Assembly (NCBI GenBank): GCA_021201095.1
Contig: JAJQFO010000164.1
Span: 1-37,198, forward strand
DNA: 37,198 nucleotides
Direction: 5' to 3'
Source: Lachnospiraceae bacterium
GTDB lineage: Bacteria; Bacillota; Clostridia; Lachnospirales; Lachnospiraceae
Part shown: positions 7,250-36,789 of the stretch, one piece after another
How positions within the stretch are numbered: the stretch's first letter is position 1
How the letters are laid out: each line of letters starts with the position of its first letter
Made by a program: the position numbers and the translations under genes
The notes under the pieces: model-generated
Database searches by the model: none
The model's input: the letters and a program-made list of their open reading frames with translations, nothing else
Told to the model about the DNA's origin: nothing

Positions 7250-9234
7250 TATGTCCTCTTTTCCTCCACAGGAACCTGCCTCATCCGTACCTGCACGACT
7301 GTAAATTTGCCTTCTCTGAATATGCGGATTCCATATTCCTCTCCAAATACGGAGCGGACTCTCTTTTCGATATTCAGCAGTCCAATCCCGTTTCCACGAG
7401 GAAGCAGCGTTCCGCTGCGCAGCTTTTCCATCAGGTTTTCTTCGGGCTCCGGCCCATTGTTGCGGACCTCACAGATGTAGTCGAGAGCTCTCTCGGGGGC
7501 ATTCTTTTTCTTCGATTTCATCTGTTGTCCTTCTGCCAGTTCCTGCATAAGCGACATCTCCGGTTCTACCTGACCATCTGCCTGTTCCTGGATTGACAAC
7601 GTCTCCGTCTTTGCCTGGTCATCTGCCTGCGCCCGGATGGGCAACATCTCCGTCTCTGCCTGGCCATCTGTCTGCTCCGGATTGGGCATCATCTCAGGCT
7701 CCGCCCGATAGACCCGCACCTCAATCGTACAGGGCTCCAGCATCTGCTCCAGGCCATAGTTAATCGCGTTTTCCGCGAGAGGCTGTATGGTGAATTTGGG
7801 GATTTGCAGATGCCGGCAGTCGTCCGCGAGATCCATGCTCACATTCAGCCTGTCTTCATACCGGTATTTCTGAATCACAAAGTAATGACTGACAATGTTC
7901 ACTTCCTTTTCCACCGAAATGAGGAATTCCTGGTTGCTGATTGTCTCCTTCAGCATGATGCTCAGGCTGCTGATCATCTCCGCCGCGTTTTTATGGCCAG
8001 CAGTCTTCACCATCCAGTATACAGAATTCAGCGCATTATACAGAAAATGGGGATTCATCTGCGACTGCAGGGCCTGCAGCTGTGTCTCCTTAATCAGCAG
8101 CTGATTGGCGTAATTATCCCGAATCAGTTCGTTGAAATTGCGCGACATCTGATTGAACGCGCATTGCAGTTCGTAAGCATCCTTGTCGTGTACTTCTTTT
8201 TCATACAGGGGCAGCTGATCGGAATTCGCGTCCGGCACCTGCTGGATATAGTGAATAAACTGGCGGATATCTTTTGTGATCCACCGTGCAAAAACCATCC
8301 CGACAGCTAAAGCGGCCACACCGCTTAAGATCAGCAGAACCATATAAAAACGGTAGGCAGCCTGCGTTCCATGAAAGAGATCAGAATAAGGCGTCAGTAC
8401 CACATAAGAAAACGTATAGTCTGACTGTATACGCTCCACCAGAAAATAAGCTTCTCCATGGATTTTTTCCACATGAAATCCGTTTTCCCCCGGCGCAGAA
8501 ACCGTTTCTGAGTCGAGCACACCATCACTGTCGTTCAGGATGTAATGATAATTTCCATCCGTATCTCCCAGTATATAGATCCCGTCATGACTGTCTGTCA
8601 GTGCTTTCCCCAACGTATTAAGATCTACAAAAAATACAATCACGCCCAGATGGGTCAGGGAAAGATCTTTCTTTTCCTTGATCTCCATCGCCATGATCAG
8701 CACATTTTCCGCCCCGGTCATTTCCGTTCCGTCCAGCAGGATGATTTTCCCGCTCGCACGGACCGCCTCATCGATGACCGTCGCGGCGTCTTCTTCCGAA
8801 AGCTGATAATAATGCGTCATTGCAATGCTTCGTCCGGAATTGCCGCGGTCAAAAAAGCTGGCGCATACGATTGAGCTGTCCGAACGAATATTTTTCTGAA
8901 TGCAGTCCGCGATCATATTATAGCTGGCATTTTTTTCAGAGCTGGAAACTGCTCCCTCTTCTTCCGCCTCCAGCAGATTGCCGGCCGCATTCTGCACATC
9001 GTCCGATAACACTACATTATACAGAGTTGTCTGAATGGCATCCAGATTGTCCTCGAGATTTTCGACAGAAGAGTCAATGAGTTCCCCGATCAGTTCGTAG
9101 ATATACTCCATATTATGCTGCTCCAGCCGGTACAGAGAAAAAAATCCGCCGCCGGAGCATAGTAAAAGTGTAATAATCAGAGTTGCGGCCACCTTCTGCA
9201 CCATGCTCCATCTTTTTTGTCCTTTTTGCTTCAT
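7249..9234 (-). CDS. Sensor histidine kinase, YesM type, with repeat insert in the ATPase domain
   Basis: This membrane kinase has one transmembrane helix near residues 15-32, an extracytoplasmic sensor region of about 250 residues, and a second helix near 290-315 followed by a HAMP-like segment. The histidine box is QMNPHFLYNALN, the PF06580 form. The N-box is QPLAENAINYG (from 484) and the G-box is RGNGIGLLNIEKR. Between N- and G-boxes lies an unusual Glu/Gln-rich insert of about 70 residues made of roughly 15-residue repeats. The start is supported by GGAGAAAAA. Together with the response regulator and the upstream solute-binding protein it resembles a sugar-sensing three-gene set in which the binding protein may present ligand to the kinase. 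Confidence 0.93.
   Translation of the reverse strand: MKQKGQKRWSMVQKVAATLIITLLLCSGGGFFSLYRLEQHNMEYIYELIGELIDSSVENLEDNLDAIQTTLYNVVLSDDVQNAAGNLLEAEEEGAVSSSEKNASYNMIADCIQKNIRSDSSIVCASFFDRGNSGRSIAMTHYYQLSEEDAATVIDEAVRASGKIILLDGTEMTGAENVLIMAMEIKEKKDLSLTHLGVIVFFVDLNTLGKALTDSHDGIYILGDTDGNYHYILNDSDGVLDSETVSAPGENGFHVEKIHGEAYFLVERIQSDYTFSYVVLTPYSDLFHGTQAAYRFYMVLLILSGVAALAVGMVFARWITKDIRQFIHYIQQVPDANSDQLPLYEKEVHDKDAYELQCAFNQMSRNFNELIRDNYANQLLIKETQLQALQSQMNPHFLYNALNSVYWMVKTAGHKNAAEMISSLSIMLKETISNQEFLISVEKEVNIVSHYFVIQKYRYEDRLNVSMDLADDCRHLQIPKFTIQPLAENAINYGLEQMLEPCTIEVRVYRAEPEMMPNPEQTDGQAETEMLPIRAQADDQAKTETLSIQEQADGQVEPEMSLMQELAEGQQMKSKKKNAPERALDYICEVRNNGPEPEENLMEKLRSGTLLPRGNGIGLLNIEKRVRSVFGEEYGIRIFREGKFTVVQVRMRQVPVEEKRT
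7495..7701 (-). repeat. In-frame tandem repeat inside the histidine kinase ATPase domain
   Basis: About three to four imperfect 45-bp units encode segments such as DGQAETEMLPIRAQA, DDQAKTETLSIQEQA and DGQVEPEMSLMQELA. The insert is flanked by conserved kinase motifs, so it is an addition to a loop of the fold. The ATP lid region is the probable site. Confidence 0.75.
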
Positions 9235-9307
9235 TTTTTCTCCTTATATACCGTAAAGCAGGCTGCAGCATTTTCCGTATGCTGATGTATTCGGGCAATT
9301 TCCCGCA

Positions 9308-10696: not shown

Positions 10697-10715
10697 ATTC
10701 CCTCTCCAATTAATC

Positions 10716-10793
10716 GGATAGGGGGAGTCCTCTCCCCCCTATCCGCTGCGCGAGCCGGGTGCGGCTTTAGCCGCAAAATTCCTTACCCGGCTC
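10716..10793 (-). terminator. Two strong hairpins between the deacetylase and solute-binding genes
   Basis: The first is GGATAGGGGGAG with CTCCCCCCTATCC (10716-10744). The second has outer arms GAGCCGGGT/ACCCGGCTC (10752-10760, 10785-10793) enclosing GCGGC-TTTA-GCCGC. Neither has a clear U-run on the minus strand. They may act as processing or attenuation structures that separate the importer genes from the signalling genes. Confidence 0.5.
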
Positions 10794-10902
10794 TGTGCAT
10801 CATTAAAAATGGCAGTTATAGTAAACGACGTAAGTCCGGATTTAAATGACTCGTCTGGCTTTCAGTCGGCGTTCCAAAATCCGGCTTTCTGACCATTTCT
10901 TC

Positions 10903-12001: not shown

Positions 12002-12140
12002 TTTATAAGTCTATGTCCGTACTAATAGCGCGTGCTGTAATCCCATGTACATTCTGCCTGTTTCGCCGATCGCACGATGCAAAATTCTCGGCGCAGCTTA
12101 GTCCGGAGTTCAGGCGATTGTAAAATGTACGCTTTCATAC

Positions 12141-12165
12141 GTACCTCGCAGCGAGTGCGAGGTAC
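12141..12165. repeat. Interspersed palindromic repeat, family 1 (copy 2)
   Basis: A perfect GTACCTCGCA-N5-TGCGAGGTAC with the conserved flanks GCTTTCATAC and TGTCC. As with copy 1, it follows closely after the stop of a minus-strand gene. Confidence 0.75.
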
Positions 12166-12189
12166 TGTCCAAAATAGCCGCAAACGATT

Positions 12190-13869
12190 TTACTCTGCCT
12201 CAAAGGTCGTCGCCACTGCGTTCTCGTAGGTCGGGAGCTTGGTGGTCATGCCCTCATTGTAAAGCTCCAGGCGCTCGTCAATGACTTCCTGATATCCGGC
12301 GTCGAGATAGCGCTGCGCATATTCCTCATACAGAGAGTCAAATTCGTCCTCAGACGCTACGACCAGCTTATCGCGGAGCTCGATGTAAAGGTTGACCAGC
12401 GTCTCCTGATATTCTGTCACAGACTCCAGAGAGTCGCCAAACATGCAGTCGGTCACGGCCCAGCCATAGGAGGCCACCTCCACCTGATTGTAGTAGTTTT
12501 CAATCACTGCATCATTGAAATTCTGCGGCAGATCCTGCGGCAGGGAAGCGGTGATGGTTTCCTCGATCGTGCCGGTGCTTCTGGATGCGGTCACGATGCA
12601 CCAGTAGTCAATGCTGTTGTTGTAGCCCTGCTTATAATCAGAGGACTGCTCGCTGTAGTCGATGGATACTTTGTTGCCATCCTCATCATAGGTGAAGTTT
12701 TCACCCTCGATGCCCCATTGGAATGTTTCAAGGACATCATCCTGGCACATCCACTCCATGTACATCATGGCAGCGGTGATTTCATCCTCTGTCGCCTGAG
12801 AAGAGAAGCCGATCATCATACCGAACGGATTGTTCGCGCGGTAAGCCGGTGCATAGCCCTCTTCATTCAGTTCTGTAGACTGAACCAGTACGGCCAGCTC
12901 CGCGTCCGGATTCTGCTCATAGAAGGAAGTCAGCCAGTCCATGGAAGCGGAGATATATCCTCCATAAGAGAAGGTCTGACCATTGATGAAGTTCGATTTC
13001 TGGGTCTCCGTATCAATCGTGTAATACTCCGGATCCAGGATGCCTGCGTTATACTTCTGGTTAATGAAGGAAAGCAGAGCATAGTTCTCATCACTGCCAA
13101 GGGACGGGATCTGATAATCACCGTACATTACCCAGTTTTCTTCATCCTGCGGGAAGGCACGGAACGCATAGGTCTGATCGGAGCCAACGCCTGTCAGCAT
13201 CACATTGTTCACACCGTCCGGATACTCAGCGAGTCCTGCTTCCTTGATCGCCAGCATCGCGTCGATGTAGTCCTGTGAATCCATATCCGGGATGTAGTCA
13301 TAGCCTACTTCCTCGAGCCAGTCCATGCGGACAAAGGTAATATAAGTATAGTTTGTCTCGTAGTACGGTCTCTCACTCAGCACCAGATAATCGCCGCCGG
13401 CGATTTCCACATACTGCAGCTGGTCGCGGTCTACCATGCCCTGATAATAGGTCGGGGCAATTTCCGCAAACTGCTCGATGTCATACTCGGTCAGGTACCC
13501 CTCGGTTGCCCAGGTTGCGAGCTTGTCGTAGTCATACTCCATCAGGATCGTCGGAAGCTCTCCGGACGCACCCAGCAGCGCATAGTCTGTCATAACATCT
13601 GTACGGGTAATGCCGACATATTCTACATTAATGTTGTACTTGTCGCCAAACTCGCTCTGCACCCACTGAGTCCAGTAGTTGTCCGTCACATCCGGAACAC
13701 CCTCTGCGCCTCTGTCGTAGACCGGGATCTTAAGGGTCACGGTCTCGTCAAACGCTTCCCATGCGTCCATGCCAGCCGCTTCCTCGGCGCCGGCGATCGC
13801 CGGAACACTTCCGAATACCATCGTACCGGCAAGTGCCGCAGCAAGAACTCTGCTCATTTTCTTAGTCAT
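12190..13869 (-). CDS. Large extracellular sugar-binding protein of the LplA/LipO type
   Basis: This is the substrate-binding component for the LplB/YtcP permeases, expected to capture pectic oligosaccharides outside the cell. It has a classical signal peptide (MTKKMSRVLAAALAGTMVFG) with cleavage near AIAGAEE. The mature protein is of the 500-residue class, with typical phrases YWTQWVQSEFGDKYNI and ITRTDVMTDYALLGASGE. No lipobox cysteine is present, which is unusual for a Gram-positive binding protein. The start is preceded by AGGAGGATTACAA. It follows the two permease genes after a 256-base gap, in the usual order for this importer class. Confidence 0.93.
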   Translation of the reverse strand: MTKKMSRVLAAALAGTMVFGSVPAIAGAEEAAGMDAWEAFDETVTLKIPVYDRGAEGVPDVTDNYWTQWVQSEFGDKYNINVEYVGITRTDVMTDYALLGASGELPTILMEYDYDKLATWATEGYLTEYDIEQFAEIAPTYYQGMVDRDQLQYVEIAGGDYLVLSERPYYETNYTYITFVRMDWLEEVGYDYIPDMDSQDYIDAMLAIKEAGLAEYPDGVNNVMLTGVGSDQTYAFRAFPQDEENWVMYGDYQIPSLGSDENYALLSFINQKYNAGILDPEYYTIDTETQKSNFINGQTFSYGGYISASMDWLTSFYEQNPDAELAVLVQSTELNEEGYAPAYRANNPFGMMIGFSSQATEDEITAAMMYMEWMCQDDVLETFQWGIEGENFTYDEDGNKVSIDYSEQSSDYKQGYNNSIDYWCIVTASRSTGTIEETITASLPQDLPQNFNDAVIENYYNQVEVASYGWAVTDCMFGDSLESVTEYQETLVNLYIELRDKLVVASEDEFDSLYEEYAQRYLDAGYQEVIDERLELYNEGMTTKLPTYENAVATTFEAE

Positions 13870-16390: not shown

Positions 16391-16955
16391 TTATACAACC
16401 GCCTCAATCAGCAGCTTATCCCCCAATACGATTTCCTGTATCCCCGGCTTTTTATTTTTATTAAAGTTAAAACTCAGCATATATCCCTTTTTCAGGTGGA
16501 AATAATCCAGATACCCGGAAAGCTGTGCCTCTCCGCGCTGATTGTATGCATTTCCCCGCCAAAGCTTAAGTTCGAGGATGTTTTGCTCTCCTTTATAATA
16601 AATCACCAGATCCATGCGCTCACTGTTCCGGGTCTGCGGCTCAATACTGTAATTTCCGACACCATTGATAATTGGTTTAAGAAAAAGGAGAAAATATTTT
16701 CTTCCAACATTTTCAAGAAATCTTTCATCCTCCTGACAATACAGTTCTTCAAATGTCTCGATAAATTTTTCCAGTATTCTCCGGATATCCAGATGCCCGC
16801 CAACAAAAAAATAATTTCTTTCCCTCTCACCGGCATCATACATTTTGCTTGTCGGCATCCACCATATCCTGAATCTTCTGTAATCTTTCGTTCAGATTCA
16901 CCATATAATGTCGATTCGGGTCACAGGCACCATTTACATTAAACCGTTTTGCCAT
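16391..16955 (-). pseudogene. Second AAA-ATPase/PD-(D/E)XK copy, internal-deletion remnant
   Basis: The start MAKRFNVNGACDPNRHYMV (ATG at 16953-16955) matches the first copy. After about 34 codons it jumps directly to the C-terminal region at TSKMYDAGERERNYFF, out of frame, so the reading stops at KQNV. Roughly 370 codons, including the Walker motifs, are missing. The remaining C-terminal 149 residues differ from the copy at 358-1942 at only about eight positions, and the nuclease core ERMDLVIYY...ILELKLWRG is intact. The N-terminal remnant is less similar to copy 1 (LNERLQKIQDMVD against LDSRLKAIREMID), so the parents may have been distinct paralogues. Confidence 0.88.
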
Positions 16956-18055: not shown

Positions 18056-18151
18056 TTTTTCATTTTCGTGATTTTTTCAGTAAAAACTTTTTCATTTTTG
18101 GGGATTCTTTCAGTAAAAACTTTTTCGATTTTCGGGATTTTTCAAGGAAAC
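18056..18151. repeat. Three imperfect 31-33 bp tandem repeats
   Basis: Units begin at 18056, 18088 and 18121, each of the form TTTTTCATTTTCGGGATT followed by TTTTCAGTAAAAAC. On the minus strand they would encode an 11-residue lysine-rich repeat (KKFLLKES-like), but no real gene is evident. The 17892-18357 gap otherwise contains the repeats listed next. Confidence 0.7.
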
Positions 18152-18250
18152 GCCCCCTCACTGCGTCTCCGCTACCGCTCCGGTCGGTGAATATCCCATC
18201 CGTTTTTTGGATGGGATGCCCACATCCACAATCAGAGATTGTGGACATAC

Positions 18251-18291
18251 CACGCCCCTCAATCAAAGATTGGGGGCAAAGCCCGGCGAGG
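18251..18291. repeat. Interspersed repeat, family 3 (copy 1)
   Basis: The block CACGCCCCTCAATC-N3-GATTGGGGGCAAAG, ending CCCGGCGAGG, recurs at 28082-28123 with few changes. The core CAATC-N3-GATTG is an inverted repeat. A related hairpin (CCACAATC/GATTGTGG) lies just upstream at about 18230. Confidence 0.65.
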
Positions 18292-18296
18292 CGTCA

Positions 18297-18421
18297 GGTC
18301 GGTTCGTCCATATTAAGTTCGCTTCGCGAAGGACGAACCTGCTAAGGAAATGCCCCCTCACTGCGTTCGGCGGCTGGTCGGTTCGTCCATATCAAATTCG
18401 CTTCGCGAAGGACGAACCTGC
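18297..18421. repeat. Duplicated 46-bp hairpin element overlapping the NhaC 3' end
   Basis: Two near-identical 46-bp copies (18297-18342 and 18376-18421) carry GGTTCGTCC...GGACGAACC arms and a TTCGCTTCGCGAA core. They are separated by a GCCCCCTCACTGCGT block that also occurs near 18151. The second copy supplies most of the last 21 codons of the NhaC gene. Confidence 0.75.
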
Positions 18422-20052
18422 CGGATTGCCAGCAGTACCAGGATCAGCAGTACAAACGTAACCGGTGTCGCTGCCAGCGCTGCGCCGGTTCCTGCGAGCG
18501 CGCCCAGGATGCCTGAAATCAGGAATCCTACGGCGCTTACGCCTGCCGCTGTCAGGGCATATGGCAGCTGTGTGACGACATGGCTGATGTGGTCGCATCC
18601 GGCTCCGGCGGATGACATGATGGTCGTATCGGAAATCGGGGAGCAATGGTCTCCGCAGACCGAGCCGGACAGGCAAGCGGCCATGGAAATCATAAGCATG
18701 GTTTCATTGCCCTCGAACACGGTACAGATAATAGGGATCAGAATCGTAAATGTCCCCCAACTGGTGCCCGACGCAAAGGACAGTCCGACCGAAATCAGGA
18801 AGATCATAAATGGAAGAAACATCCAGAGGCCGCCCGCAGTCGCTTCCACCAGGTCATGGATGTAGACGGCAATTCCCAGAAGCTGCGTGATCCCGGAAAG
18901 GTTCCATGCAAGAATCAGGATGATCATCGGGCCGCACATCGTCTTCAGGCCATTGGGGATGCATTCCATAAAGTCGCGGAAGCCCATCACGCCCCGCAGC
19001 ATATAAAGTGCAAAGGTAAATAATAAGGAAATAAATGCTCCCGTTACCAGCGCTCTTACCGCGTCGCAGTCCGCGAAGGCTTCCATCAGGCTCGCCCCCT
19101 GGAAGAACCCGCCGGTGTCCAGCATCCCCCAGATGCTAAATCCGATCAGAACCAGCAGCGGCAGAACCGTGTTGCTCACCTTTCCATTTCCGTCGTTTTT
19201 CGCCGCGGCCGTCTCATTTCCGGTCGGAACCGTGAACAAATCGCCATTTTGAGCGTTAGCCTCATACTTTTTCATAGGGCCGTAATCCAGCCGAAAAAGG
19301 ACGACAAGGAACAGCATCAGCAGAGTCACCAGCGGATACAGATTCAGCGGAATCAGACGGATGAACATCTGAAAACCGTTGATCCCCATCTCCTCCGGCA
19401 CCGAGGTCGTCACCGCCGCCGCCCAGCTGGAGATCGGCGCGATGATGCAGATCGGCGCTGCCGTGGAATCAATGATATAGGCCAGCTTGGCCCTGGAAAT
19501 CTTTTCCCTGTCCGTGAGCGGGCGCATGACCGAGCCCACCGTCATACAGTTGAAACCATCGTCCACAAAAATAAGCAGTCCCAGCAGAATCGTTGCCAGC
19601 TGCGCTCCCGTCCTTGTTTTTACATGCGTACTCGCCCACTTTCCAAAGGCCTCAGCGCTGCCCGACTGGTTCAGTATGTAGACAAGCATAAACAGCATGC
19701 CGCAGAAAATCAGCACACCGGAGTGCCCGATGGTCGCCACATTCGCCACCAGGCCGCCGGTTTCATCATACAGCATCGTTTCCAGCGCAAGCTCCAGATT
19801 GCCATTCGCGTAGAGCAGCGCACCCACGATGATACCGGCGAGCAGTGAGCTGTACACCTCCTTCGTGATCAGAGCCAGCACAATTGCCAGAAGCGGCGGC
19901 ACGACAGACAAAATCGTCGCATAGGCCGCCGAGGTATGTTCAGAGCTGTCTGACTGGCCGGAAGTGACGGTCAGATAAAGCAAAATTACGCCCGCCGCCA
20001 GCAAAAGTACAGCAATGATACGCTTTAAAAGAGTTTTCCTGGATTCGGTCAT
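18358..20052 (-). CDS. nhaC: NhaC-family Na+/H+ antiporter
   Basis: This is a multi-helix membrane antiporter of about 564 residues (start MTESRKTLLKR, preceded by AAGGGTGATC). Family motifs include FVDDGFNCMTVGSVMRPL, IDSTAAPICIIAPISSW, FASGTSWGTFTILIP and SGSVCGDHCSPISDTT. It exchanges Na+ (or a related substrate such as malate/lactate pairs in some relatives) for protons. The C-terminal tail RPSRSEFDMDEPTSRRTQ is encoded by a repeat element also present just downstream. The original stop was therefore probably replaced when the repeat inserted. The hydrophobic core is complete, so function is likely retained. Confidence 0.92.
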   Translation of the reverse strand: MTESRKTLLKRIIAVLLLAAGVILLYLTVTSGQSDSSEHTSAAYATILSVVPPLLAIVLALITKEVYSSLLAGIIVGALLYANGNLELALETMLYDETGGLVANVATIGHSGVLIFCGMLFMLVYILNQSGSAEAFGKWASTHVKTRTGAQLATILLGLLIFVDDGFNCMTVGSVMRPLTDREKISRAKLAYIIDSTAAPICIIAPISSWAAAVTTSVPEEMGINGFQMFIRLIPLNLYPLVTLLMLFLVVLFRLDYGPMKKYEANAQNGDLFTVPTGNETAAAKNDGNGKVSNTVLPLLVLIGFSIWGMLDTGGFFQGASLMEAFADCDAVRALVTGAFISLLFTFALYMLRGVMGFRDFMECIPNGLKTMCGPMIILILAWNLSGITQLLGIAVYIHDLVEATAGGLWMFLPFMIFLISVGLSFASGTSWGTFTILIPIICTVFEGNETMLMISMAACLSGSVCGDHCSPISDTTIMSSAGAGCDHISHVVTQLPYALTAAGVSAVGFLISGILGALAGTGAALAATPVTFVLLILVLLAIRQVRPSRSEFDMDEPTSRRTQ

Positions 20053-21476: not shown

Positions 21477-23111
21477 ATGGAACAATATCAGGGAAAAACG
21501 GTTTATCCCAAAATCGCCATCGGTACCGTATTTTTTTACCATAAAAAGGAAACGCCGGTGCAGAAACGGCACATTGACGACCCGGAGGCGGAAATTGCCC
21601 GCTTTCAGGCGGCAAAAAAGACCGCTCTCTCCCATCTGGATGTGATTTATCAGAAGGCGGAAAAGGAGATCGGCAAAGACGATGCGGCCATCTTCCAGTT
21701 CCATAAGATGATGATGGAGGATGAAACCTATCTGGAAGCTGTCTGTAATATCATTCGCTTGGAAAAGGTAAATGCGGAATATGCGGTTGCAGCAACAGGA
21801 AAATCCTTTGCCGGGATGTTCGCGCAGATGGACGATGCCTACATGCAGGCGCGCGCCGCGGACGTAAAGGATATTTCCGGACGGCTTGTCGCGGTACTTA
21901 GCGGTGGCGGGGCAGATATGTATCTGTCCAGCTCGGATCTGCGCGCCCTGGCATCGCCAGTTATTTTGATAGCGGATGATCTGACGCCCAGCGAGACGAT
22001 CCAGATGGACAAATCCAAAATTCTGGCCTTTGTGACCCGCCAGGGCTCCGTCAACTCTCACACCGCCATCCTCGCGCGCACCATGCGGATTCCCGCTGTA
22101 ATCGGCGTCGGCATCCAGGAAGCATGGGCGGGAAGAACTGCGATTATTGACGGCCATACCGGCACCGTGATTCTCGACCCGGACACTGAAACCCTGGAAC
22201 AAATGACCGCGAAAATGCAGGAGGATGAGAAAAAGCAGCAGCTTCTGCAGGCGCTCCGCGGAAAAGAGACTGTCACAAAGAGCGGGCGGAAAATCCATCT
22301 GTATGCCAACATCGGCAGTGTCTCTGATATCGCAGAGGTATTGAAAAATGACGGTGAGGGGATCGGTCTGTTCCGGAGCGAGTTTCTCTACCTGGATTCC
22401 AGCGACTTCCCGACCGAAGAAGCGCAGTTTGCGGCCTACAAAACGGCCGCCCAAAGAATGGGCGGCAAAAAGGTGATTATCCGCACGATGGACATCGGAG
22501 CTGACAAGCAGGCGGACTACTTTCATCTGGAAAAGGAAGACAATCCGGCCATGGGCTTCCGCGCCATCCGCATCTGTCTGGAGAGGCAGGACATTTTCCG
22601 CACACAGCTGCGCGCCCTGCTGCGCGCAAGCGCTTTCGGAAACCTTTCCATCATGTTCCCCATGATCATCTCCGTGCAGGAGGTGCGGGAAAGCATGCGC
22701 ATCCTGGAAGAGGAAAAAGCCCGGCTGCGCAGGGAGGCAATCCCTTATAAAGATGTAGAAACTGGCATTATGATCGAGACGCCGGCTGCCGTCTGGATCA
22801 GCGGGGAGCTGGCACGGGAGGTCGATTTTTTCAGCATCGGCACCAACGACCTGACACAGTATATACTGGCAGCCGACCGGCAGAATCCCAGACTGGACGG
22901 CATCTATGACCCCCGCCACCCTGCCGTGCTGCGGGCCATACAGACTGTGATAGAAAACGGCCACAAGGGCGGCGCCTGGGTCGGCATCTGCGGCGAGCTC
23001 GCCGCAGACACTACATTAACAAAGACCTTTCTGGAAATGGGGATTGATGAACTGTCCGTATCCCCCTCCTTTTTGCTTCCCGTAAGAGAGGCCGTGCGGA
23101 ATCTGGACTAA
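21477..23111 (+). CDS. ptsI: Phosphoenolpyruvate-protein phosphotransferase (PTS enzyme I)
   Basis: Enzyme I passes phosphate from PEP to HPr, starting all PTS sugar uptake. The phosphohistidine motif is GSVNSHTAILARTMRIPAV (His195). The PEP-binding barrel has GIGLFRSEFLYLD, IRTMDIGADKQADYF and FSIGTNDLTQY, and the catalytic cysteine is in WVGICGE (Cys505). The 544 residues are slightly below the common 570. The ATG is preceded by AAAGGGACTTC. HPr is not encoded beside it. The 21283-21476 spacer contains imperfect duplicates such as CATAGCTGTAAGGCAGTCC and CATAGCCGCAAGGCGATCC, and no gene. Confidence 0.95.
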   Translation: MEQYQGKTVYPKIAIGTVFFYHKKETPVQKRHIDDPEAEIARFQAAKKTALSHLDVIYQKAEKEIGKDDAAIFQFHKMMMEDETYLEAVCNIIRLEKVNAEYAVAATGKSFAGMFAQMDDAYMQARAADVKDISGRLVAVLSGGGADMYLSSSDLRALASPVILIADDLTPSETIQMDKSKILAFVTRQGSVNSHTAILARTMRIPAVIGVGIQEAWAGRTAIIDGHTGTVILDPDTETLEQMTAKMQEDEKKQQLLQALRGKETVTKSGRKIHLYANIGSVSDIAEVLKNDGEGIGLFRSEFLYLDSSDFPTEEAQFAAYKTAAQRMGGKKVIIRTMDIGADKQADYFHLEKEDNPAMGFRAIRICLERQDIFRTQLRALLRASAFGNLSIMFPMIISVQEVRESMRILEEEKARLRREAIPYKDVETGIMIETPAAVWISGELAREVDFFSIGTNDLTQYILAADRQNPRLDGIYDPRHPAVLRAIQTVIENGHKGGAWVGICGELAADTTLTKTFLEMGIDELSVSPSFLLPVREAVRNLD

Positions 23112-23276: not shown

Positions 23277-25166
23277 TCACCCCCGCAGCCTCTCATACAT
23301 CGCCATGTAGTCCTCATCCGATTCCATAAAGTCCATCAGAAGATCATAGTCCTCCAGATTCGTGCCCACGCCATTTAAACCGATAAAATAGACATCCCTC
23401 TCGTTAGTCACATCATATCCGGCATCCGTCATGATTCTCTCAATCTCATCAAGATTTGCCTCATGAATGGCGATCACTTCCTGATATTTGTCATCTATCC
23501 AGCAAAACGCGGAGACAAAATTCTCATTTTCCATAATCTCATCATACACATCGGAATGATTCGATGCGGCATACAGCAAATAGGTCAGAATATAATAGCG
23601 AAATTCCGCATAAGCGCTGGATGTACTGCAGTTGCTGACATAGGCCAGCCAGGTTTCCGGCGTCTGCTCCTGTGTTTTGTAGTAATTAAATAAAGAAACA
23701 CATGTACTGGTTCCCCAGCAGTAAGCGGTAAATTCGTCCAGTAGTCCATAGATACCTTCGACATTTGAAGCAAGATTTTCATCCGGCTCACCCACGTAGG
23801 TGGAAAAGCGAAACGTCCGCAGCTCCTCCGGTATCATCTCAATCATTTCCTGCGATTCATACACGTCAGTAAAATCCATGTCCAGGCTGTATCCTTCCCC
23901 AACATATACGCTTTGAGCCTTCCCATTGCGGAACCTGGTCACTCCATCTACAAATTCCCCGGCATTCGCAGTCGTAAAGTGGTGGCACATCTCATGCACC
24001 GCCGTAGAAACATTCTGAACTGCGTCGCCGCCATAAAAGTAACACATAAAATCCTGCTCCTGATTCAGCGCGTAATTCAGAAAAAAAGCCCCGTCCAGGT
24101 CATAGGCATACAAAAGTGCCAGCAGATTTTCCTCTGTCGCGTCGTCTTCAAGCCCCGGAATAACGGACAGGTCGGTCAGCTCAGCAACCGCGCTTACCGT
24201 TTCCTCCCAGATGGCCGCAGCGACCGTACTCTGCGCAGCATCCGGACTCCTCTCTACGCTCTCTCCGGCAATGATTTCTCCGGAAGACACGTAGGATTCC
24301 GATACCGATCCGTCAGCAGAATCTGCCTGGGCGGAGTCTGTTGAAGTGGAGCCTGCTAAAGCGGAGTCTGCTGATGCAGAGCCTACTGCGGCGGAGTCTG
24401 CTGAAGCGGAATCTGCTGCGGCGGAGTCTGCTGAAGCGGAATCTGCCGCAGCGGAATCTGTCGCGGCGGAGTCTGCCGTTGAGGAATCTGCCGTGATGAG
24501 CTCCTCCGCAGAATCCTCATTTTCTCTCTCCTGTGAAATGCCCAGCTTTTCTGCAGTCTCTGAGACCAGGTTCTGCGCCTGTTCCGACACATTCGACGCC
24601 AGCTTCTGTGCCAGCTTCGGCACCTCTGATATCGCTCCCGGTACCTCCGATACCAGATTCCACGCCAGTGTTGGCACTTCCCGGATATCATCCACAAAAT
24701 GGAAACGCAGATTTGCGATACAAATCGCTGCTACAGCCACGATCAGAACCAGTAATCGTTTCAAAAGTGTATAAGTCTTTCTCCTTCGCTTCTTTTTTCT
24801 TCTGGCGGAAGCCTGTGCAGCCGCATCTGCAGACGTACGCGCGCCCGTACTCCGACTCCCGTAAGAATACGCCCCTGCGCTCCTGCCTGAGGATGCTCCT
24901 GTACTCCTGCCTGAAGATGTTCCCGTGCTCCTGACAGAAGATACTCCCGTACTCCTGCCTGAAGATGCTCCCGTCTTTCCTGGATATTCCCACGTTCCAT
25001 TCCCGGAATAGCTCCCCGTTCCTTTCGTGCTGCTTCCTCCGGAGCTCAAATCGATATCAGAAAGAAGATCATCCCAAAAATCATCATCCCAGATGTCCCC
25101 GCCGGTTTGGCCAAAGCCCTTCGCCTGATGATTTCCTTTACTCTGATTTTTCCCAGTCCCTTCCAT
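23277..25166 (-). CDS. Membrane-anchored repeat-rich protein with HExxH metallopeptidase-like domain
   Basis: I do not recognise a named family. The N-terminal 120 residues are Gly/Ser-rich with SSGRSTG-type repeats. A lysine/arginine patch (122-130) and one transmembrane helix (about 134-152) follow, so the C-terminal two thirds should lie outside the cell. Residues 226-284 are five-residue ADSAS/ADSAA repeats, a likely wall-spanning spacer. The globular domain contains AVHEMCHHF (His391, Glu392, His395), and the helix GLLDEFTAYC (Glu478) is a plausible third zinc ligand. This is compatible with a gluzincin-type peptidase. GGGAGGAAGCT precedes the ATG. It is divergent from the GH3 gene. Activity is inferred only from the motif. 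Confidence 0.8.
   Translation of the reverse strand: MEGTGKNQSKGNHQAKGFGQTGGDIWDDDFWDDLLSDIDLSSGGSSTKGTGSYSGNGTWEYPGKTGASSGRSTGVSSVRSTGTSSGRSTGASSGRSAGAYSYGSRSTGARTSADAAAQASARRKKKRRRKTYTLLKRLLVLIVAVAAICIANLRFHFVDDIREVPTLAWNLVSEVPGAISEVPKLAQKLASNVSEQAQNLVSETAEKLGISQERENEDSAEELITADSSTADSAATDSAAADSASADSAAADSASADSAAVGSASADSALAGSTSTDSAQADSADGSVSESYVSSGEIIAGESVERSPDAAQSTVAAAIWEETVSAVAELTDLSVIPGLEDDATEENLLALLYAYDLDGAFFLNYALNQEQDFMCYFYGGDAVQNVSTAVHEMCHHFTTANAGEFVDGVTRFRNGKAQSVYVGEGYSLDMDFTDVYESQEMIEMIPEELRTFRFSTYVGEPDENLASNVEGIYGLLDEFTAYCWGTSTCVSLFNYYKTQEQTPETWLAYVSNCSTSSAYAEFRYYILTYLLYAASNHSDVYDEIMENENFVSAFCWIDDKYQEVIAIHEANLDEIERIMTDAGYDVTNERDVYFIGLNGVGTNLEDYDLLMDFMESDEDYMAMYERLRG
24315..24491 (-). 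repeat. 15-bp-unit tandem repeat encoding ADSAx
   Basis: About twelve units encode ADSAS, ADSAA, ADSAL, TDSAQ and similar. The length is variable-number-repeat-like and always in frame, so repeat number could change spacer length without breaking the protein. Confidence 0.8.
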
Positions 25167-25255
25167 AGCTTCCTCCCCATTCGTTTTCTATTCATAGCCG
25201 TTCACTGTATTCACCGCCGCAAGGTTTTTTCTCTGTTAAATATACTTTTTCATAC

Positions 25256-25280
25256 GTACTTCGCAGCAGATGCGCAGTAT
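25256..25280. repeat. Interspersed palindromic repeat, family 1 (degenerate copy 3)
   Basis: GTACTTCGCA-N5-TGCGCAGTAT, preceded by TTTTCATAC and followed by TGTCT, matches the copies at 6397 and 12141 with several substitutions. It lies in the 279-base divergent gap upstream of both the metallopeptidase-like and GH3 genes. Confidence 0.6.
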
Positions 25281-25445
25281 TGTCTCAAATCAGTTCCTTC
25301 TATTTATTTAACTATCTTACTTTGCTTTCCTTTTTCTGTCAACGCCGCGCATTTCAAAAAATATTTATTTTCCTCTTCCACAAATCCACAAATCATGATA
25401 CCTTAATAATACACATCAATTATCTAAATCAGGAGGAATTTTATC

Positions 25446-27914: not shown

Positions 27915-28030
27915 TGGAGTACTGATAGACTTCTCTTGCAGCCCTGATCGAGCAGGAGGCGGCTTGTCGGCTCCTACTCGCCCGCGCAGTTGCTGTGTGC
28001 CAGTGGCATCCTTGTCCGGCACTGCGCATA

Positions 28031-28078: not shown

Positions 28079-28081
28079 ATG

Positions 28082-28123
28082 CCCACGCCCCACAATCGGA
28101 GATTGGGGGCAAAACCCGGCGAG
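28082..28123. repeat. Interspersed repeat, family 3 (copy 2)
   Basis: CCCACGCCCCACAATC-N3-GATTGGGGGCAAAA followed by CCCGGCGAGG matches 18251-18291. The surrounding 27915-28217 gap contains the terminator, this element and no gene. Confidence 0.65.
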
Positions 28124-28217
28124 GGAGTTTACCGACTGAAGCCCGACGCTGTCTACGCTTCAAACACAGCTCGCGCAAAGATTATTTTAGCTTGCGATCA
28201 CACAACCAGGTCAGGAA

Positions 28218-29477
28218 TCACGGCCTCAGCTCCATCTTCACCGAGATCCCATTTCCTTCTACGCGCACCGTCGCATAGCTGCCGGTCACCAGCGGCATCG
28301 CAGGCGGCAGATGCCCCAGATCCACATCCATCACAACCGGGACACCCTTGCGCCCCGCCACATCAAGCACGGCCTGATATCGATCCAGCCCCATCATTGG
28401 CTCCAGAGCGCCAAGCGGCCGGCCGATCAGAAAGCCTTTCACATAGCGGAACCAGTCCGCATGCTCCATCTGCCACATGGCGCGGCGGATAGCAAACGCA
28501 TTCAGGTCGCAGGCCTCCAGAAACCAGATGATCCCATCCTCCCGATACCTTTCCTGAAAAACCTCCGTATAATCATAACGTGTGCCCAGCAGATTCACAA
28601 GGCAGTCCATGCAGCCGCCGAGAAGCCGCCCGGAAAAGGTGGTCTGGGGGATCTCTTTTCCGGACAGCACCTGAAATGCTTCCGGCTGAAGCAGTCCTTT
28701 TGCCGATCCGTCATAAAATTTCAGCACCTTCCGCTCCGTCAGGTTGTAAGAAGCGAGCGGATTTTCCTCATTCTTTTTCCCTTCGAGCTCCCATTTGGGG
28801 TAGCCGCTGACCGTAAATGTCGGATAGCTTGTTTCTGAATCACGAGCCACCTCACTTTTCACATCGTCCGCGTCATAGTCAGTCTCAGCTTTCACATGAT
28901 CTGCAGCATAGTCAGCCTCACCTTTCGCATGATCTGCTGCACAGTCAGCAGAGTTTGAGGCAGCATCGTCCCCGGGAACCTCCTTCCACCCAGGCCCTTT
29001 CCCACTGATCAGCGCAAATGCATCCCTGATGGCCTGGTGCTGGCGGCTCATCCCAAAGGCGGCCGCGCAGGGACCGTAAATAGAAGCCGTATCGCAGATC
29101 GTGGCCAGCAGATAGGTCATATTTGTATTATCTGAATACCCCATAAACCATTTCGCCGGAGCCGCCGCAATCTGATCCCAGTCCATGTAATCCAGAATCT
29201 CGCACATCAGCTCTCCGCCCCCGCAGGAGATCAGGCAGTCATTGTCTTCCTTTAAATAATACGCCATCAGCTCCTCTCCGCAGAGACGGGGCGTATTGCT
29301 GATCCCGATACCGGCACTTGCATAGCAGTTCGGCCCCAGATCCAGATGGTAGCCCTGCCGTTTCCAGCGGCGCAGTGCATTTTCAAATGCAGTCTTGTAT
29401 GGTTCAATGCTGCATCCAAAGGATGGCGCGACTAAGCCAATCGTGCCATGTTCCGGTAGAAATTTTCCATATTTCAT
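28218..29477 (-). CDS. S66-family LD-carboxypeptidase (LdcA/MccF type) with repeat insert
   Basis: This serine peptidase removes a terminal D-amino acid from murein tetrapeptides, or inactivates microcin-C-like compounds in MccF relatives. Catalytic elements are present: the nucleophile in FMGYSDNTN (Ser115), Glu321 in WFLEACD and His389 in DVDLGHLPPAMPL. The N-terminal GTIGLVAPSFGCS is also typical. The family is usually about 310-350 residues. The excess comes from an acidic insert at about 172-215, made of three 11-residue repeats such as AADHVKAETDY, between the two subdomains. There is no signal peptide. The gene appears to stand alone. Confidence 0.9.
   Translation of the reverse strand: MKYGKFLPEHGTIGLVAPSFGCSIEPYKTAFENALRRWKRQGYHLDLGPNCYASAGIGISNTPRLCGEELMAYYLKEDNDCLISCGGGELMCEILDYMDWDQIAAAPAKWFMGYSDNTNMTYLLATICDTASIYGPCAAAFGMSRQHQAIRDAFALISGKGPGWKEVPGDDAASNSADCAADHAKGEADYAADHVKAETDYDADDVKSEVARDSETSYPTFTVSGYPKWELEGKKNEENPLASYNLTERKVLKFYDGSAKGLLQPEAFQVLSGKEIPQTTFSGRLLGGCMDCLVNLLGTRYDYTEVFQERYREDGIIWFLEACDLNAFAIRRAMWQMEHADWFRYVKGFLIGRPLGALEPMMGLDRYQAVLDVAGRKGVPVVMDVDLGHLPPAMPLVTGSYATVRVEGNGISVKMELRP
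28833..28964 (-). repeat. 33-bp-unit in-frame repeat inside the LD-carboxypeptidase
   Basis: Three units encode AADHAKGEADY, AADHVKAETDY and DADDVKSEVAR, with partly decayed edges. The unit size (33 bp) equals the period of the CE12 insertion. Confidence 0.75.
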
Positions 29478-32020: not shown

Positions 32021-32093
32021 GCCTGGCGCCAATTGCGAAGAATGTTCCGATTTGCGCAGCAAATCGAGAACGATACCGTGCCAATCGCCAGGC
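32021..32093 (-). terminator. Hairpin structure downstream of the TSUP gene
   Basis: Arms GCCTGGCG (32021-32028) and CGCCAGGC (32086-32093) enclose a second perfect hairpin GATTTGC-GCA-GCAAATC (32049-32065). It lacks a U-run, so termination is uncertain. Confidence 0.45.
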
Positions 32094-32118
32094 AATTTTC
32101 TTATGCACAGCTTTCCTG

Positions 32119-32922: not shown

Positions 32923-32951
32923 ATACTAATACAAAATGCGTGTAATGGCAA
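32923..32951 (-). promoter_or_regulatory. Proximal promoter of the TSUP gene
   Basis: TTGCCA (32946-32951) and TAGTAT (32923-32928) on the minus strand are 17 bases apart. The implied start lies about 30 bases before the ATG. Confidence 0.5.
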
Positions 32952-33012
32952 GCAGCAGAGAATTAAAAAAGAATAAAATCGAAGGAATTCCTTAATTTTT
33001 TCCGACTTTATC

Positions 33013-33040
33013 ATTATAATTTCCCCGTCTGATTTGTCAA
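33013..33040 (-). promoter_or_regulatory. Distal consensus promoter of the TSUP gene
   Basis: On the minus strand TTGACA (33035-33040) and TATAAT (33013-33018) are perfect hexamers 16 bases apart. The transcript would have a leader of about 115 bases that includes the second promoter. Confidence 0.7.
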
Positions 33041-33075
33041 GCCTTTTCGCCTGCTTAACAAACAATTCACATTAC

Positions 33076-33120
33076 CATAGCTGGCATAACGATAAGTCAA
33101 AGTCCCCGATGCCAGCTATG
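33076..33120. terminator. Hairpin upstream of the TSUP promoters
   Basis: A perfect 12-bp inverted repeat, CATAGCTGGCAT/ATGCCAGCTATG, with a 21-base loop. It lies downstream of the FAD oxidoreductase remnant on the minus strand and may end that transcript. There is no U-run. The rest of the 32890-33355 gap shows no convincing gene. Confidence 0.45.
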
Positions 33121-33355
33121 TCATAAAGGATACCATATGCTCTGGCAGTCTGACCGACTGTAACAACGGAACCGCAAAAGAGCAGGGAATCCTCTGTTCC
33201 CCGCCCTTCCTGTTGTGACACGCGGCGCACGCATCCCATTCCGGCAGCTCTGCTGCGCGTTCTTTTGATGTACAGTTCTCCTCCGGCACCGATAAACAGG
33301 TCAATTTTGCGCATCATCAGCGCATGGCACCTGCTGGTCTATACTCCTGCCAGCA

Positions 33356-34168
33356 TCAGCACGTAGCTCCGCCTTTTACTGTCTTTTTCAATATGCTTTC
33401 CTTATCAATCCGGCCTTCCAGCAGCTTTTGGCTGACAACGTCAAATCCCAGCCGGGTCACGGTATCTGCAAAGCGCTCTCCCGTCTGTCCCTCATCGCGG
33501 AACAGCAGGATCGCTTTTTCGACCACATCCATAACCTCTTCCTCGGAAGTGAAGATCCGGGGCAGCGGCTCGCCATGCGCAACCTTTTTACCCCAGCGTC
33601 CGCCGATATAGATGCGGTAGCCGTCCTGATAATCGATCGCCCCGAATACACATTTAACGGAAAGCCCTTTTGCCATCAGATTTTCCGCGATTTCCAGCCC
33701 GATAAAACCAGCGCCGACCACAACCGCACTTCTGCAGGAATTCTGCTCCACGTAGGAACGCAGCCCGGCAGCGTCGTCCGGCGTGCGCATGGTAAAGACG
33801 CCACTCAGGGAAGGCCCCGGCACATTCGGTATGAACGGCACCGCTCCGGTTGCGATGACCAGCTTATCATAAAAGACCGTTTCCCCATTTGCAAAGCGCA
33901 CGGTCTTATCCTGCGGAGCGACTGCGACCGCTTCCATGCCCGTTTTTACCTGCACCCCGGTCAGCCCTGTATATTTCTCCGGCGTATTGACAATCAGCTC
34001 CCCGCGGCTTTCAATAGCCCCGCCCACATAATAAGGCAGACCGCATCCGGCGTAGGAAATATCCCCGCTCTTCGTATAGACAGTCACCGAAGCAGAGCTG
34101 TCCTCACGTTTCAGCTTTGCTGCGGTCTTCGTTCCGGCAGCTACGCCGCCAAGTACAACAATCTTCAT
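33356..34168 (-). pseudogene. FAD oxidoreductase (CoA-disulfide reductase type) fused by internal deletion to a sulfite-reductase-like tail
   Basis: Residues 1-170 are the front of a CoA-disulfide reductase/NADH oxidase-type flavoprotein. They include the FAD loop GGVAAGTKTAAKLKR, the redox cysteine in SYAGCGLPYYVGG (Cys42), ATGAVPFIP, and the second nucleotide loop VVVGAGFIGLEIAENL. Immediately after GLSV the sequence becomes KCVFGAIDYQDGYRIYIGG, then RWGKKVAHGEPLPRIFTSEE. That resembles the C-terminal end of 4Fe-4S/sirohaem sulfite or nitrite reductase proteins such as AsrC. The NAD domain, dimerisation domain and iron-sulfur region are all missing. The fusion is in frame, so a 270-residue product could be made, but catalysis is unlikely. 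The start has AAGGAGAGAAAACT and a strong promoter. Confidence 0.75.
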
Positions 34169-34231
34169 AGTTTTCTCTCCTTGTATCCCTGTTTCTCAGC
34201 GAGTAACCGGCAAACCTTTTCTATCCTTTGT

Positions 34232-34282
34232 ATCTTACTATTAAAAATGGCATATGTCAATTTATAAAACTGACATATGCCA
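34232..34282 (-). promoter_or_regulatory. Strong promoter overlapped by a perfect 12-bp inverted-repeat operator
   Basis: On the minus strand TTGACA (34255-34260) and TAAGAT (34232-34237) are 17 bases apart, with the start about 57 bases before the oxidoreductase ATG. The arms TGGCATATGTCA (34248-34259) and TGACATATGCCA (34271-34282) form a perfect inverted repeat with an 11-base AT-rich spacer, covering the -35. Each arm is itself nearly palindromic (TGRCATATGYCA), so two repressor dimers could bind. Confidence 0.7.
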
Positions 34283-34359
34283 AAAACTCTGTCTTCGAAT
34301 CAATATTTTTATACTATAAGCAACCCAGATATCCGGACTTTCCCATACGCTTCTGATTT

Positions 34360-35727: not shown

Positions 35728-35755
35728 AAGTCTCCTCCTTTGAAAAATGATCTTT

Positions 35756-35796
35756 AAAAAGAAAACGGACGGCCTGGCATTCGCACAGCCGTGTGC
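35756..35796 (-). promoter_or_regulatory. Possible attenuator in the citrate synthase leader
   Basis: On the minus strand ACGGCTG...CAGGCCGT (35769-35792) can form a stem with one bulge, followed after CCG by TTTTCTTTTT (35756-35765). That is intrinsic-terminator-like and lies just before the ribosome binding site. The alternative hairpin GCACA-CGGC-TGTGC (35783-35796) uses the same bases and would prevent the terminator. Upstream lies an ACAAC-rich stretch readable as runs of Thr or Asn codons. The 35728-36074 gap contains this leader and the promoter. Confidence 0.4.
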
Positions 35797-35924
35797 TTCG
35801 CCCGCCATCCTCGTCGGTTGTTTTGGTTGTTGTAATAATTTTTATTGTGAAAGATGATTCCTGGAACCATCCAAAGAAGCCTGTATTCAGCTTCCTTCTG
35901 CTGATGCCGATTTCATCAAATTCC

Positions 35925-35952
35925 ATTATACACAGATGAAAAAAATTTGCAA
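35925..35952 (-). promoter_or_regulatory. gltA: Sigma-A promoter of citrate synthase
   Basis: TTGCAA (35947-35952) and TATAAT (35925-35930) on the minus strand are 16 bases apart. A start near 35918 leaves a leader of about 190 bases. Confidence 0.65.
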
Positions 35953-36074
35953 CCGCTCTTTTTTCAATTTTTCGCAGCTGTTTAGGCTGTTTGAACGCTG
36001 TTTCGCTGTTTAAGCAGCATCGGCCGAAACAGCAGTGCAGATCTTCAGTCAGCTGTCCTGAACAGCTGCAATTC

Positions 36075-36242
36075 TTAACCTGTAAAGAAAATAACTCCCA
36101 TCCCAATCAGCACGGCAAGTAAGAGCACAATGAGAATGAGCAATACAATCTGAACTGGTGTAACACCATTTCCCTGTTTCTTTTCGTCCCGCTCCCAGGA
36201 ATCCTCCCAGTCATTTTTTATTTCCCGTTCATATCGGTTCAT
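36075..36242 (-). CDS. 55-residue single-pass membrane protein
   Basis: This small gene encodes a charged head (MNRYEREIKNDWEDSWERD) followed by a strong transmembrane helix (about 29-52, rich in Leu, Ile and Val) and ends FFTG. GGAAGG lies about ten bases before the ATG. It overlaps the end of the ArsR gene by 14 bases in another frame, so the two are probably translated from one transcript. Its function is unknown. The pairing with a metal- or redox-type repressor suggests a small stress-linked membrane peptide. The acidic, tryptophan-containing head is cytoplasmic if the positive-inside rule at KK(21-22) holds. Confidence 0.75.
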   Translation of the reverse strand: MNRYEREIKNDWEDSWERDEKKQGNGVTPVQIVLLILIVLLLAVLIGMGVIFFTG

Positions 36243-36789
36243 CTGTTTTGCTTCCTTCCCGTCTGGAGGTTTTCCAGTGTCTGATCATGTTTTCCAGCTG
36301 CTCCATCGTATCCTGTCGTATCGTATAGCAAATCCGTTTTCCGTCCCGCCGGCAGCTGATCAGCCCGCTTTCATTTAGTACCTTCATATGGTGAGACATT
36401 GTGGACTGAGCCACTGCAACGGATTGAAGCAATTCGGCGGCACACATCTCCCTCTCCGAAAGCAAATTCAGTATTTTCAGGCGGTTCTCATCAGAAAGTG
36501 CCTGGAAAACAGCGGGCAAGTTCCAATTCCAATCTCCTGAAGCAGCGTTATGAGAGAGCGTTTCATCTGTGGAAACCATCTCCCGGGGGCTTTTCTTGGA
36601 AGTGTTCGCCTTTGATAAATTCTCTTTTGAAGATTTCTCTATGAAAGGTTTCTTCTTTGAAGGATCCTCTTCTGAAGATTTCTCCTGTAAGGATTTTTCT
36701 TCTGAAAATTCCTCCTGCAAAGATTTCTTCTTTGAAGATTTTGCTTTTACAGATTTTGAGGACTTTTTCTCTTTTTTCTTCTTACCCAT
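36229..36789 (-). CDS. ArsR-family transcriptional regulator with lysine/glutamate repeat N-terminus
   Basis: Residues 91-175 form an ArsR/SmtB winged helix: LPAVFQALSDENRLKILNLL, the recognition region VAQSTMSHHMKVLNESGLI and the wing RRDGKRICYTI. The usual CxC metal site of the recognition helix is absent; one Cys lies in EREMCAAELL. The ligand is therefore unclear. Residues 1-75 are a highly charged Lys/Ser/Glu extension with imperfect repeats (KKSLQEEFSEE, KSLQEKSSEED, SSKENLSK), unusual for this family. The start MGKKKKEKK was chosen because GGAG lies eight bases upstream. A palindrome just downstream of its -10 suggests autoregulation. It is transcribed together with the small membrane protein. 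Confidence 0.9.
   Translation of the reverse strand: MGKKKKEKKSSKSVKAKSSKKKSLQEEFSEEKSLQEKSSEEDPSKKKPFIEKSSKENLSKANTSKKSPREMVSTDETLSHNAASGDWNWNLPAVFQALSDENRLKILNLLSEREMCAAELLQSVAVAQSTMSHHMKVLNESGLISCRRDGKRICYTIRQDTMEQLENMIRHWKTSRREGSKTDEPI

What the first reader, a model, noticed from the sequence alone, without database searches (positions are those of the whole stretch)
7495..36789. Recurrent in-frame tandem-repeat inserts in otherwise conserved enzymes
Conserved proteins here carry low-complexity or tandem inserts whose units are multiples of three: the histidine kinase between N- and G-boxes (45 bp), the LD-carboxypeptidase (33 bp), the HExxH protein (15 bp), the ArsR N-terminus and the edge frame (27 bp). 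Non-repetitive low-complexity stretches occur in CE12, GH3, GH28 and the sulfotransferase. Seeing so many in 37 kb is unusual for bacteria. Inference: an active minisatellite-generating process, filtered by selection for frame, may diversify protein loops.
Basis: partly seen in the sequence, partly recalled or inferred. Interest (0 to 1): 0.7.

Follow-up and report, generated by a model that had tools for sequence, protein, structure and literature searches.

The report
In-frame minisatellites expanding enzyme loops
In a genus of bacteria related to gut Lachnospiraceae, short stretches of DNA keep being copied in tandem; inside genes the copies are nearly always whole codons and mostly sit in linkers, loops or tails, so close species carry differently sized loops in the same enzyme.

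Summary
The window holds 8 tandem arrays (score 50 or more), against 3 in total over 20 simulated windows; 6 lie in listed genes, against 1 in total over 20 codon shuffles. In the genus sample 94 of 101 arrays in open frames have periods divisible by three, against 20 of 48 outside; without the two sibling genomes, 80 of 86 against 14 of 38. Recoding the genes with the same protein never restores the repeat score (0 of 50 for each of 6 arrays), so the copies are DNA duplications. No dispersed copies were found. Sibling species differ at these sites, twice by whole units (histidine kinase, GH65). The PTS Enzyme I loop block is 30-32 residues in 29 of 29 aligned outgroup sequences but 50-103 in 13 of 47 genus genomes. 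Local tandem duplication filtered by frame and position is well supported; benefit from the variation is untested, and tolerance suffices. Other families of the order also have arrays (8.3 against 13.7 per 100 kb), so the excess is modest. Coding minisatellites are a known kind; repeated expansion of one loop of a central enzyme within one genus is the unusual part.

The parts
7532..7695 (-). 45-bp array (3.6 copies) in the histidine kinase gene 7249-9234(-), residues about 514-568, C-terminal to the His_kinase domain
   Evidence: TRF; Pfam His_kinase at 385-463; G060 lacks 45 aa = three 15-aa units, G061 lacks 16 aa; same codon in 25 of 29 aa-identical pairs, expected 15.8; 0 of 50 recodings reach the score
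28850..28949 (-). 33-bp array (3.0 copies) in the S66 LD-carboxypeptidase gene 28218-29477(-), between the N and C domains
   Evidence: TRF; Pfam domains 13-135 and 282-404; sibling G060 has the homologous array with diverged copies; G061 lacks 39 aa there; 0 of 50 recodings
24315..24493 (-). 15/45-bp Ala/Ser/Asp-coding array in the HExxH protein 23277-25166(-)
   Evidence: TRF; the 12 relatives found align only from residue 303-334 on; same codon 32 of 47, expected 14.3; 0 of 50 recodings reach the score, though 33 of 50 still hold some array
24880..24974 (-). 24-bp array (4.0 copies) in the N-terminal region of the same HExxH protein
   Evidence: TRF; same codon 26 of 37, expected 9.4; 0 of 50 recodings
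36610..36756 (-). 15/45-bp Lys/Ser/Glu array N-terminal to the ArsR-type HTH (36229-36858,-)
   Evidence: TRF; HTH_5 at residues 123-168; same codon 18 of 21, expected 8.3; small indels against G061
37078..37144 (-). 27-bp array at the window edge; in the siblings the matching frame is the acidic end of a larger open frame
   Evidence: TRF; open frames of 233 aa (G060) and 273 aa (G061) in the stretches read
18056..18142 (.). intergenic 33-bp array between the ARMT1-like gene and the Na+/H+ antiporter gene
   Evidence: TRF; classed noncoding; similar repeat units in G001 next to its LD-carboxypeptidase gene
5976..6019 (-). weak 19-bp array (2.3 copies) in GH28, the one window array in a gene whose period is not divisible by three
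   Evidence: TRF; listed; outside the Pfam matches of the protein
21477..23111 (+). PTS Enzyme I gene; site of the variable loop at own residues about 145-158 (no array found here in this species)
2179..4485 (-). GDSL/SLH protein with variable low-complexity stretches; 13-aa repeats in G061, fewer here, none at that site in G060

Best explanation
These are mostly protein-coding minisatellites. In this genus, local tandem duplication of segments of roughly 12 to 108 bp occurs both between and inside genes. Shown: the copies are DNA duplications, those in open frames are nearly all of in-frame length, no dispersed copies were found, and sibling species differ at the same sites, in two clear cases by whole units. 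Inferred: replication slippage or unequal exchange makes and changes the copies; purifying selection removes those that break the frame or the fold; survivors in linkers, loops and termini are tolerated, drift and turn over. A few sites, such as one loop of Enzyme I, tolerate length so well that inserts come or go there repeatedly.
For: Frame: 94 of 101 coding against 20 of 48 noncoding periods divisible by three, p 2.1e-11; without sibling genomes 80 of 86 against 14 of 38, p 9e-11. From the counts, out-of-frame arrays are about 29-fold rarer per base in coding than in noncoding DNA, in-frame ones about 1.5-fold. DNA origin: 0 of 50 protein-preserving recodings reach the observed repeat score at any of 6 window arrays; shared synonymous codons exceed expectation in 18 of 18 rows. 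Unit-sized change: HK 45 aa = 3 units; GH65 6 aa = 1 unit between proteins 98% alike. Position: LDCP between domains, ArsR before the HTH; of 10 other array-bearing frames scanned (of 21 listed), 7 have a Pfam family and in all 7 the array lies outside the main Pfam match (in one it overlaps a sub-threshold HTH match). Recurrence: EI loop expanded in 13 of 47 genus genomes; 8 changes on the EI tree, at least 5 forced by well supported branches.
Against: Ten of the 13 expanded EI loops show no array with period divisible by three at score 50, so tandem origin is inferred for them, or the repeats have decayed; likewise the 37-aa second insert of G060 LDCP. Seven coding arrays of the genus sample have periods not divisible by three, one of them in the window. 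The synonymous-codon test alone is partly circular, since TRF selects for DNA likeness; the recoding control was run to meet that, on the window only. Coding status came from a greedy ORF rule (90 aa or more), which may favour in-frame arrays. In the order sample alone the frame contrast is 26 of 29 against 6 of 10 (p 0.06). Genomes are drafts, so copy numbers are uncertain. No strain data.
Confidence: 0.8

Rival explanations
1. The inserts are adaptive: selection keeps changing loop length to tune enzymes or their partners (contingency-type variation).
For: EI loop changed repeatedly; 6 of 22 window genes vary against G060 after setting two likely artefacts aside; copy number of a coding repeat changes phenotype in E. 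coli tolA (PMC3477136, abstract).
Against: In-frame arrays are not enriched in coding over noncoding DNA (9.6 against 14.6 per 100 kb counts), as expected if merely tolerated; unrelated proteins are affected; inserts of different genes share no DNA match.
Confidence: 0.12
2. The inserts are copies of a mobile or palindromic element placed in frame, as recalled for Rickettsia palindromic elements.
For: Dispersed intergenic repeats abound in these genomes.
Against: No listed match at another place of the own genome overlaps a coding array (window 6300-37198 searched; best 40 of about 300 candidates scored in each), nor in 2.6 Mb of held, partly redundant DNA apart from orthologues and self.
Confidence: 0.04
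3. Old family features: the inserts belong to the protein families and are shared by distant genera.
For: Low-complexity regions are described as conserved in many prokaryotes (PMC6821194, start of abstract).
Against: 29 of 29 aligned outgroup EI loops are 30-32 aa; the LDCP array is missing in G061 and the eight other aligned relatives have shorter or unlike sequence there (one, G001, a long unlike one); the HK insert is missing in G060.
Confidence: 0.03
4. Assembly artefacts of draft genomes.
For: Own genome is 362 contigs with 5.35% contamination; the named siblings are metagenome-assembled (titles).
Against: The same loci carry homologous but diverged arrays in separate records (LDCP in own and G060, ArsR in own, G060 and G061); the window arrays' copies match at only 73-85%, which assemble better than perfect repeats; frame is kept.
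Confidence: 0.03

Closest known systems
Coding satellites/tandem repeats of prokaryotes (PMC6749651 and PMC8161180, passages read)
   Same: Arrays unique to their loci; periods in genes mostly multiples of three; density differs greatly among species
   Different: In the passages seen, coding examples are repeat proteins such as surface-layer or stress proteins; here loops of conserved enzymes are involved and one loop is expanded repeatedly within a genus. 'Lachnospir' has 0 hits in the first paper
Variable intragenic repeat of E. coli tolA (PMC3477136, abstract)
   Same: In-frame copy-number variation within a gene
   Different: There between strains of one species with a tested phenotype; here between species, in several genes, untested
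Low-complexity inserts in Plasmodium housekeeping proteins (recalled, no call)
   Same: In-frame low-complexity inserts in loops of conserved enzymes
   Different: Eukaryote of extreme base composition; here G+C is about 50%
Rickettsia palindromic elements (recalled; only a listing seen)
   Same: Extra in-frame peptide in unrelated proteins
   Different: Those are a dispersed family; here the inserts of different genes do not match each other

Membership tests
Coding minisatellite / VNTR | Head-to-tail DNA copies of about 10-100 bp | tested here: met
   TRF; codon test; recoding control
Coding minisatellite / VNTR | Unit number varies between close relatives | tested here: met
   HK 45 aa (3 units) in G060, GH65 6 aa (1 unit) in G064
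Coding minisatellite / VNTR | Varies between strains of one species | not testable with these tools
   One genome per species held; no metagenome scan offered
Coding minisatellite / VNTR | Periods divisible by three in coding DNA | tested here: met
   94 of 101 against 20 of 48 noncoding; exceptions listed
In-frame mobile element (RPE-like) | Dispersed homologous copies in several genes | tested here: not met
   No other copy of coding arrays, within their limits
Contingency locus (adaptive switching) | Length change alters phenotype under selection | not tested
   Needs bench work

The most novel reading that the evidence does not exclude
The genus has an inherited, unusually high rate of short tandem duplication that works as a general loop-length generator: it repeatedly rebuilds the same loops in central enzymes, including what looks like the only full-length Enzyme I of several genomes, and some length changes are selected because they alter sugar-transport control or protein partners.
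Probability: 0.15. Interest if true: 0.75.

Novelty: new variant of a known kind. Interest (0 to 1): 0.5.

Why it matters
It offers a natural series of length variants of one loop in a central enzyme (loop block 31 to 103 residues), in places among species whose Enzyme I cores are nearly identical. With it one can test how insertions enter folded enzymes, whether they are neutral, and how fast bacteria build new, probably unstructured protein segments. It also warns that such length differences need not be gene-calling errors.

Tried and rejected
Mobile-element origin: not supported (window 1-6299 was not searched against the own genome). Old family features: contradicted for EI, LDCP and HK. 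Genus-wide test on the histidine kinase: only the own genome of 60 matched at E 1e-60, so that comparison rests on two siblings. HExxH protein: no Pfam family at E 0.001, and no match in the stretches fetched from G060 and G061. Literature: 0 papers hold 'tandem repeats', 'lachnospiraceae' and 'minisatellite' together; 'acetatifactor' with 'tandem repeat' gave one paper on diet and diabetes; the genus of the window is not known to me, and Acetatifactor was a guess. Searches had no taxon term; of their listings I opened four papers.

Rows dropped or set aside: arrays only partly in an ORF (5 in the genus, 2 in the order) are outside the coding/noncoding table. The genus table includes stretches of G060 and G061 chosen for matching the window, so some arrays are counted in orthologous form; one search gives the count without them. 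In one search, NhaC (N-terminal extension) and PfkB (contig end) of G060 I judge artefacts, so 8 of 22 becomes 6 of 22; G061 is 7 of 22. The codon test kept only periods divisible by three. For Enzyme I I aligned 38 sequences from 37 of 47 genomes; G015 (partial) was left out of the tree; second copies other than in G008 and the ten remaining genomes were not aligned, but their listed matches run through the loop in one piece and are shorter than the query stretch. G060, G061 and G062 look like the same records as G064, G066 and G008 (identical inserts); only the latter are counted in the 13 of 47. Of the 21 array-bearing frames, 10 were scanned; some of the others may be spurious frames.
Full report
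What was checked. Merged, there are 8 at score 50 or more (one search lists them); 20 simulated windows gave 3 in total. Six lie inside listed genes; 20 codon-shuffled versions gave 1 in total. Pfam supports the histidine kinase, Peptidase_S66, ArsR-type HTH, GDSL with a weak SLH match, GH28 and GH3; the HExxH protein has no family, and the sulfotransferase was not scanned.

How common. I sampled 354 kb of the own genome (window included), 1,121 kb of the genus in all, and 492 kb from other families of the order. Arrays per 100 kb: 13.7 in the genus (154) and 8.3 in the order sample (41), p 0.004 (a plain count test that ignores relatedness). The difference lies mainly in noncoding DNA (35.0 against 13.3, p 0.004); in coding DNA it is 10.3 against 7.0, p 0.07. 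Stretches taken without regard to the window range from 6.8 (G010) to 20.4 (G024). 100 kb of E. coli K-12 has 1. So the window is rich, its genome less so, and the genus moderately richer than its neighbours.

Frame. In the genus sample 94 of 101 arrays inside open frames have a period divisible by three; outside it is 20 of 48, not different from one third (p 0.22). Without the two sibling genomes, whose stretches match the window, it is 80 of 86 against 14 of 38 (p 9e-11). In the order sample it is 26 of 29 against 6 of 10 (p 0.06). From the genus counts and the coding share (about 981 and 137 kb), out-of-frame arrays occur at 0.7 per 100 kb in coding and 20.4 in noncoding DNA, in-frame arrays at 9.6 and 14.6. 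The generator therefore does not itself prefer multiples of three; selection on frame explains the pattern, and most in-frame arrays seem to survive. The ORF rule was crude and could favour in-frame arrays. The seven exceptions are listed; one is the GH28 array, found also in G060.

DNA duplication. Copies within arrays share synonymous codons more often than codon usage predicts in 18 of 18 rows: LDCP 10 of 11 against 5.0, HK 25 of 29 against 15.8, HExxH 32 of 47 against 14.3 and 26 of 37 against 9.4, ArsR 18 of 21 against 8.3, Enzyme I of G064 17 of 17 against 6.8 (codon usage from window genes). As TRF selects for DNA likeness, this is partly circular. So I recoded all listed window genes at random, keeping the proteins: 0 of 50 recodings reached the observed score at any of the six arrays, though some array of score 50 remained in 0 (GH28) to 33 (HExxH 15/45) of 50. 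Likeness of the copies thus goes beyond the protein repeats.

Sibling species. Two genomes share long blocks with the window, mostly at 90-94% (G060) and 83-92% (G061) DNA identity in the long matches. Of 22 genes with a match in each, 8 (G060) and 7 (G061) have internal indels of 5 aa or more; two of the G060 cases look like a gene-start and a contig-end artefact, leaving 6. They are the GDSL protein, HK, Enzyme I, LDCP, the sulfotransferase and the CoA-disulfide-reductase-like protein (name recalled); ArsR joins in G061. The other 15 show none once those artefacts are set aside. HK lacks 45 aa in G060, three units. LDCP has a homologous array in G060 with diverged copies and lacks 39 aa of the region in G061, which keeps what looks like about one unit. 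In the GDSL protein, 13-aa units number about seven by eye in G061, fewer here, none at that site in G060. Outside the window, GH65 of G064 is 98% identical to the own protein, lacks exactly one 6-aa unit of its array and differs again at another loop.

Enzyme I. All 47 genus genomes have a match. I aligned 38 sequences from 37 of them: the block around the loop is 31-32 residues in 23, 38-39 in 2 (the own protein and G050) and 50-103 in 13. The other 10 genomes' matches run through the loop in one piece without net gain. In the order search 123 of 196 genomes match, own included; I aligned 29 outgroup sequences, and all 29 have 30-32. On a quick tree built without the loop, the 13 expanded rows need 8 changes (gains or losses), at least 5 forced by starred branches; the label is also clustered (17 of 500 shuffles as low). 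Near neighbours differ: G014 has a 20-residue longer loop than G001 and G008a, with end branches near 0.01. The inserts do not match each other except G008b with G065, G071 with G072 and G023, short matches of these with G005, and a short match of G009 with G050. Only G005 (60 bp x 3.8), G066 and G064 (15 bp) show an array of in-frame period at score 50. In sequence alignment the solved Enzyme I 2hro is several residues shorter than the own protein at this site; that it is a surface loop and that the inserts are disordered is inferred, since structure prediction was off.

Position. In the window LDCP's array lies between the two Pfam domains and ArsR's before the HTH. Of 21 other array-bearing frames of the own genome I scanned 10; 7 have a Pfam family, and in all 7 the array lies outside the main match, e.g. 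between GH65 domains N and m.

Not a mobile element, as far as searched. Window 6300-37198 against the own genome finds many copies of short intergenic elements and no listed match elsewhere that overlaps a coding array (the best 40 of about 300 candidates are scored in each). In 2.6 Mb of held, partly redundant DNA the coding inserts match only orthologues and themselves.

How it most likely works. Tandem duplication by slippage or unequal exchange supplies arrays everywhere; frame and fold select; linkers, loops and termini tolerate them; units then diverge, which would explain arrays with imperfect copies and inserts without detectable repeats. The supply step is inferred. I found no evidence that length itself is selected; in-frame arrays are not more frequent in genes than between genes, which favours tolerance.

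Known kinds. Prokaryote satellites with periods divisible by three in genes, many unique to their loci, are described (PMC6749651 and PMC8161180, passages), and tolA in E. coli is a studied case (PMC3477136, abstract). The two literature searches that named a taxon found no such report for this group; they cover an open-licence library only. Plasmodium low-complexity inserts are the nearest parallel that I recall.

Noticed in passing
window about 6333-6443, 10703-10815, 12118-12193, 18146-18291, 25199-25303, 27946-28008, 28079-28125, 32041-32115: Short, apparently intergenic repeats with many matches in the own genome and/or in G060-G062, like REP or MITE elements; not identified.
   Followed up: no
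window 33356-34168 (-): The CoA-disulfide-reductase-like gene is 270 aa here but lies in frames of 869 and 957 aa in G060 and G061: an internal in-frame loss of 591 aa relative to G060 with a clean junction. Real deletion or assembly join is open.
   Followed up: partly
window 358-1942 (-): AAA-ATPase/PD-(D/E)XK-like protein lies in two frames here but in one frame in G060 and G061; related stretches recur in the own genome, one also at about 16391-16858.
   Followed up: partly
window 18342-18422 (-): GA-cis RNA (RF02987), 54.7 bits, at the upstream side of the Na+/H+ antiporter frame as listed, although the match overlaps its 3' end region 18358-18422 on the same strand.
   Followed up: no
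window 23277-25166 (-): The HExxH protein gene sits between Enzyme I and GH3 here; in G060 these two neighbours lie within about 200 bases of each other and no match to it was found in the fetched stretches.
   Followed up: partly
G008 (L218, L242): Two Enzyme I genes in one genome, one with the short loop block (31) and one with a long one (71).
   Followed up: no
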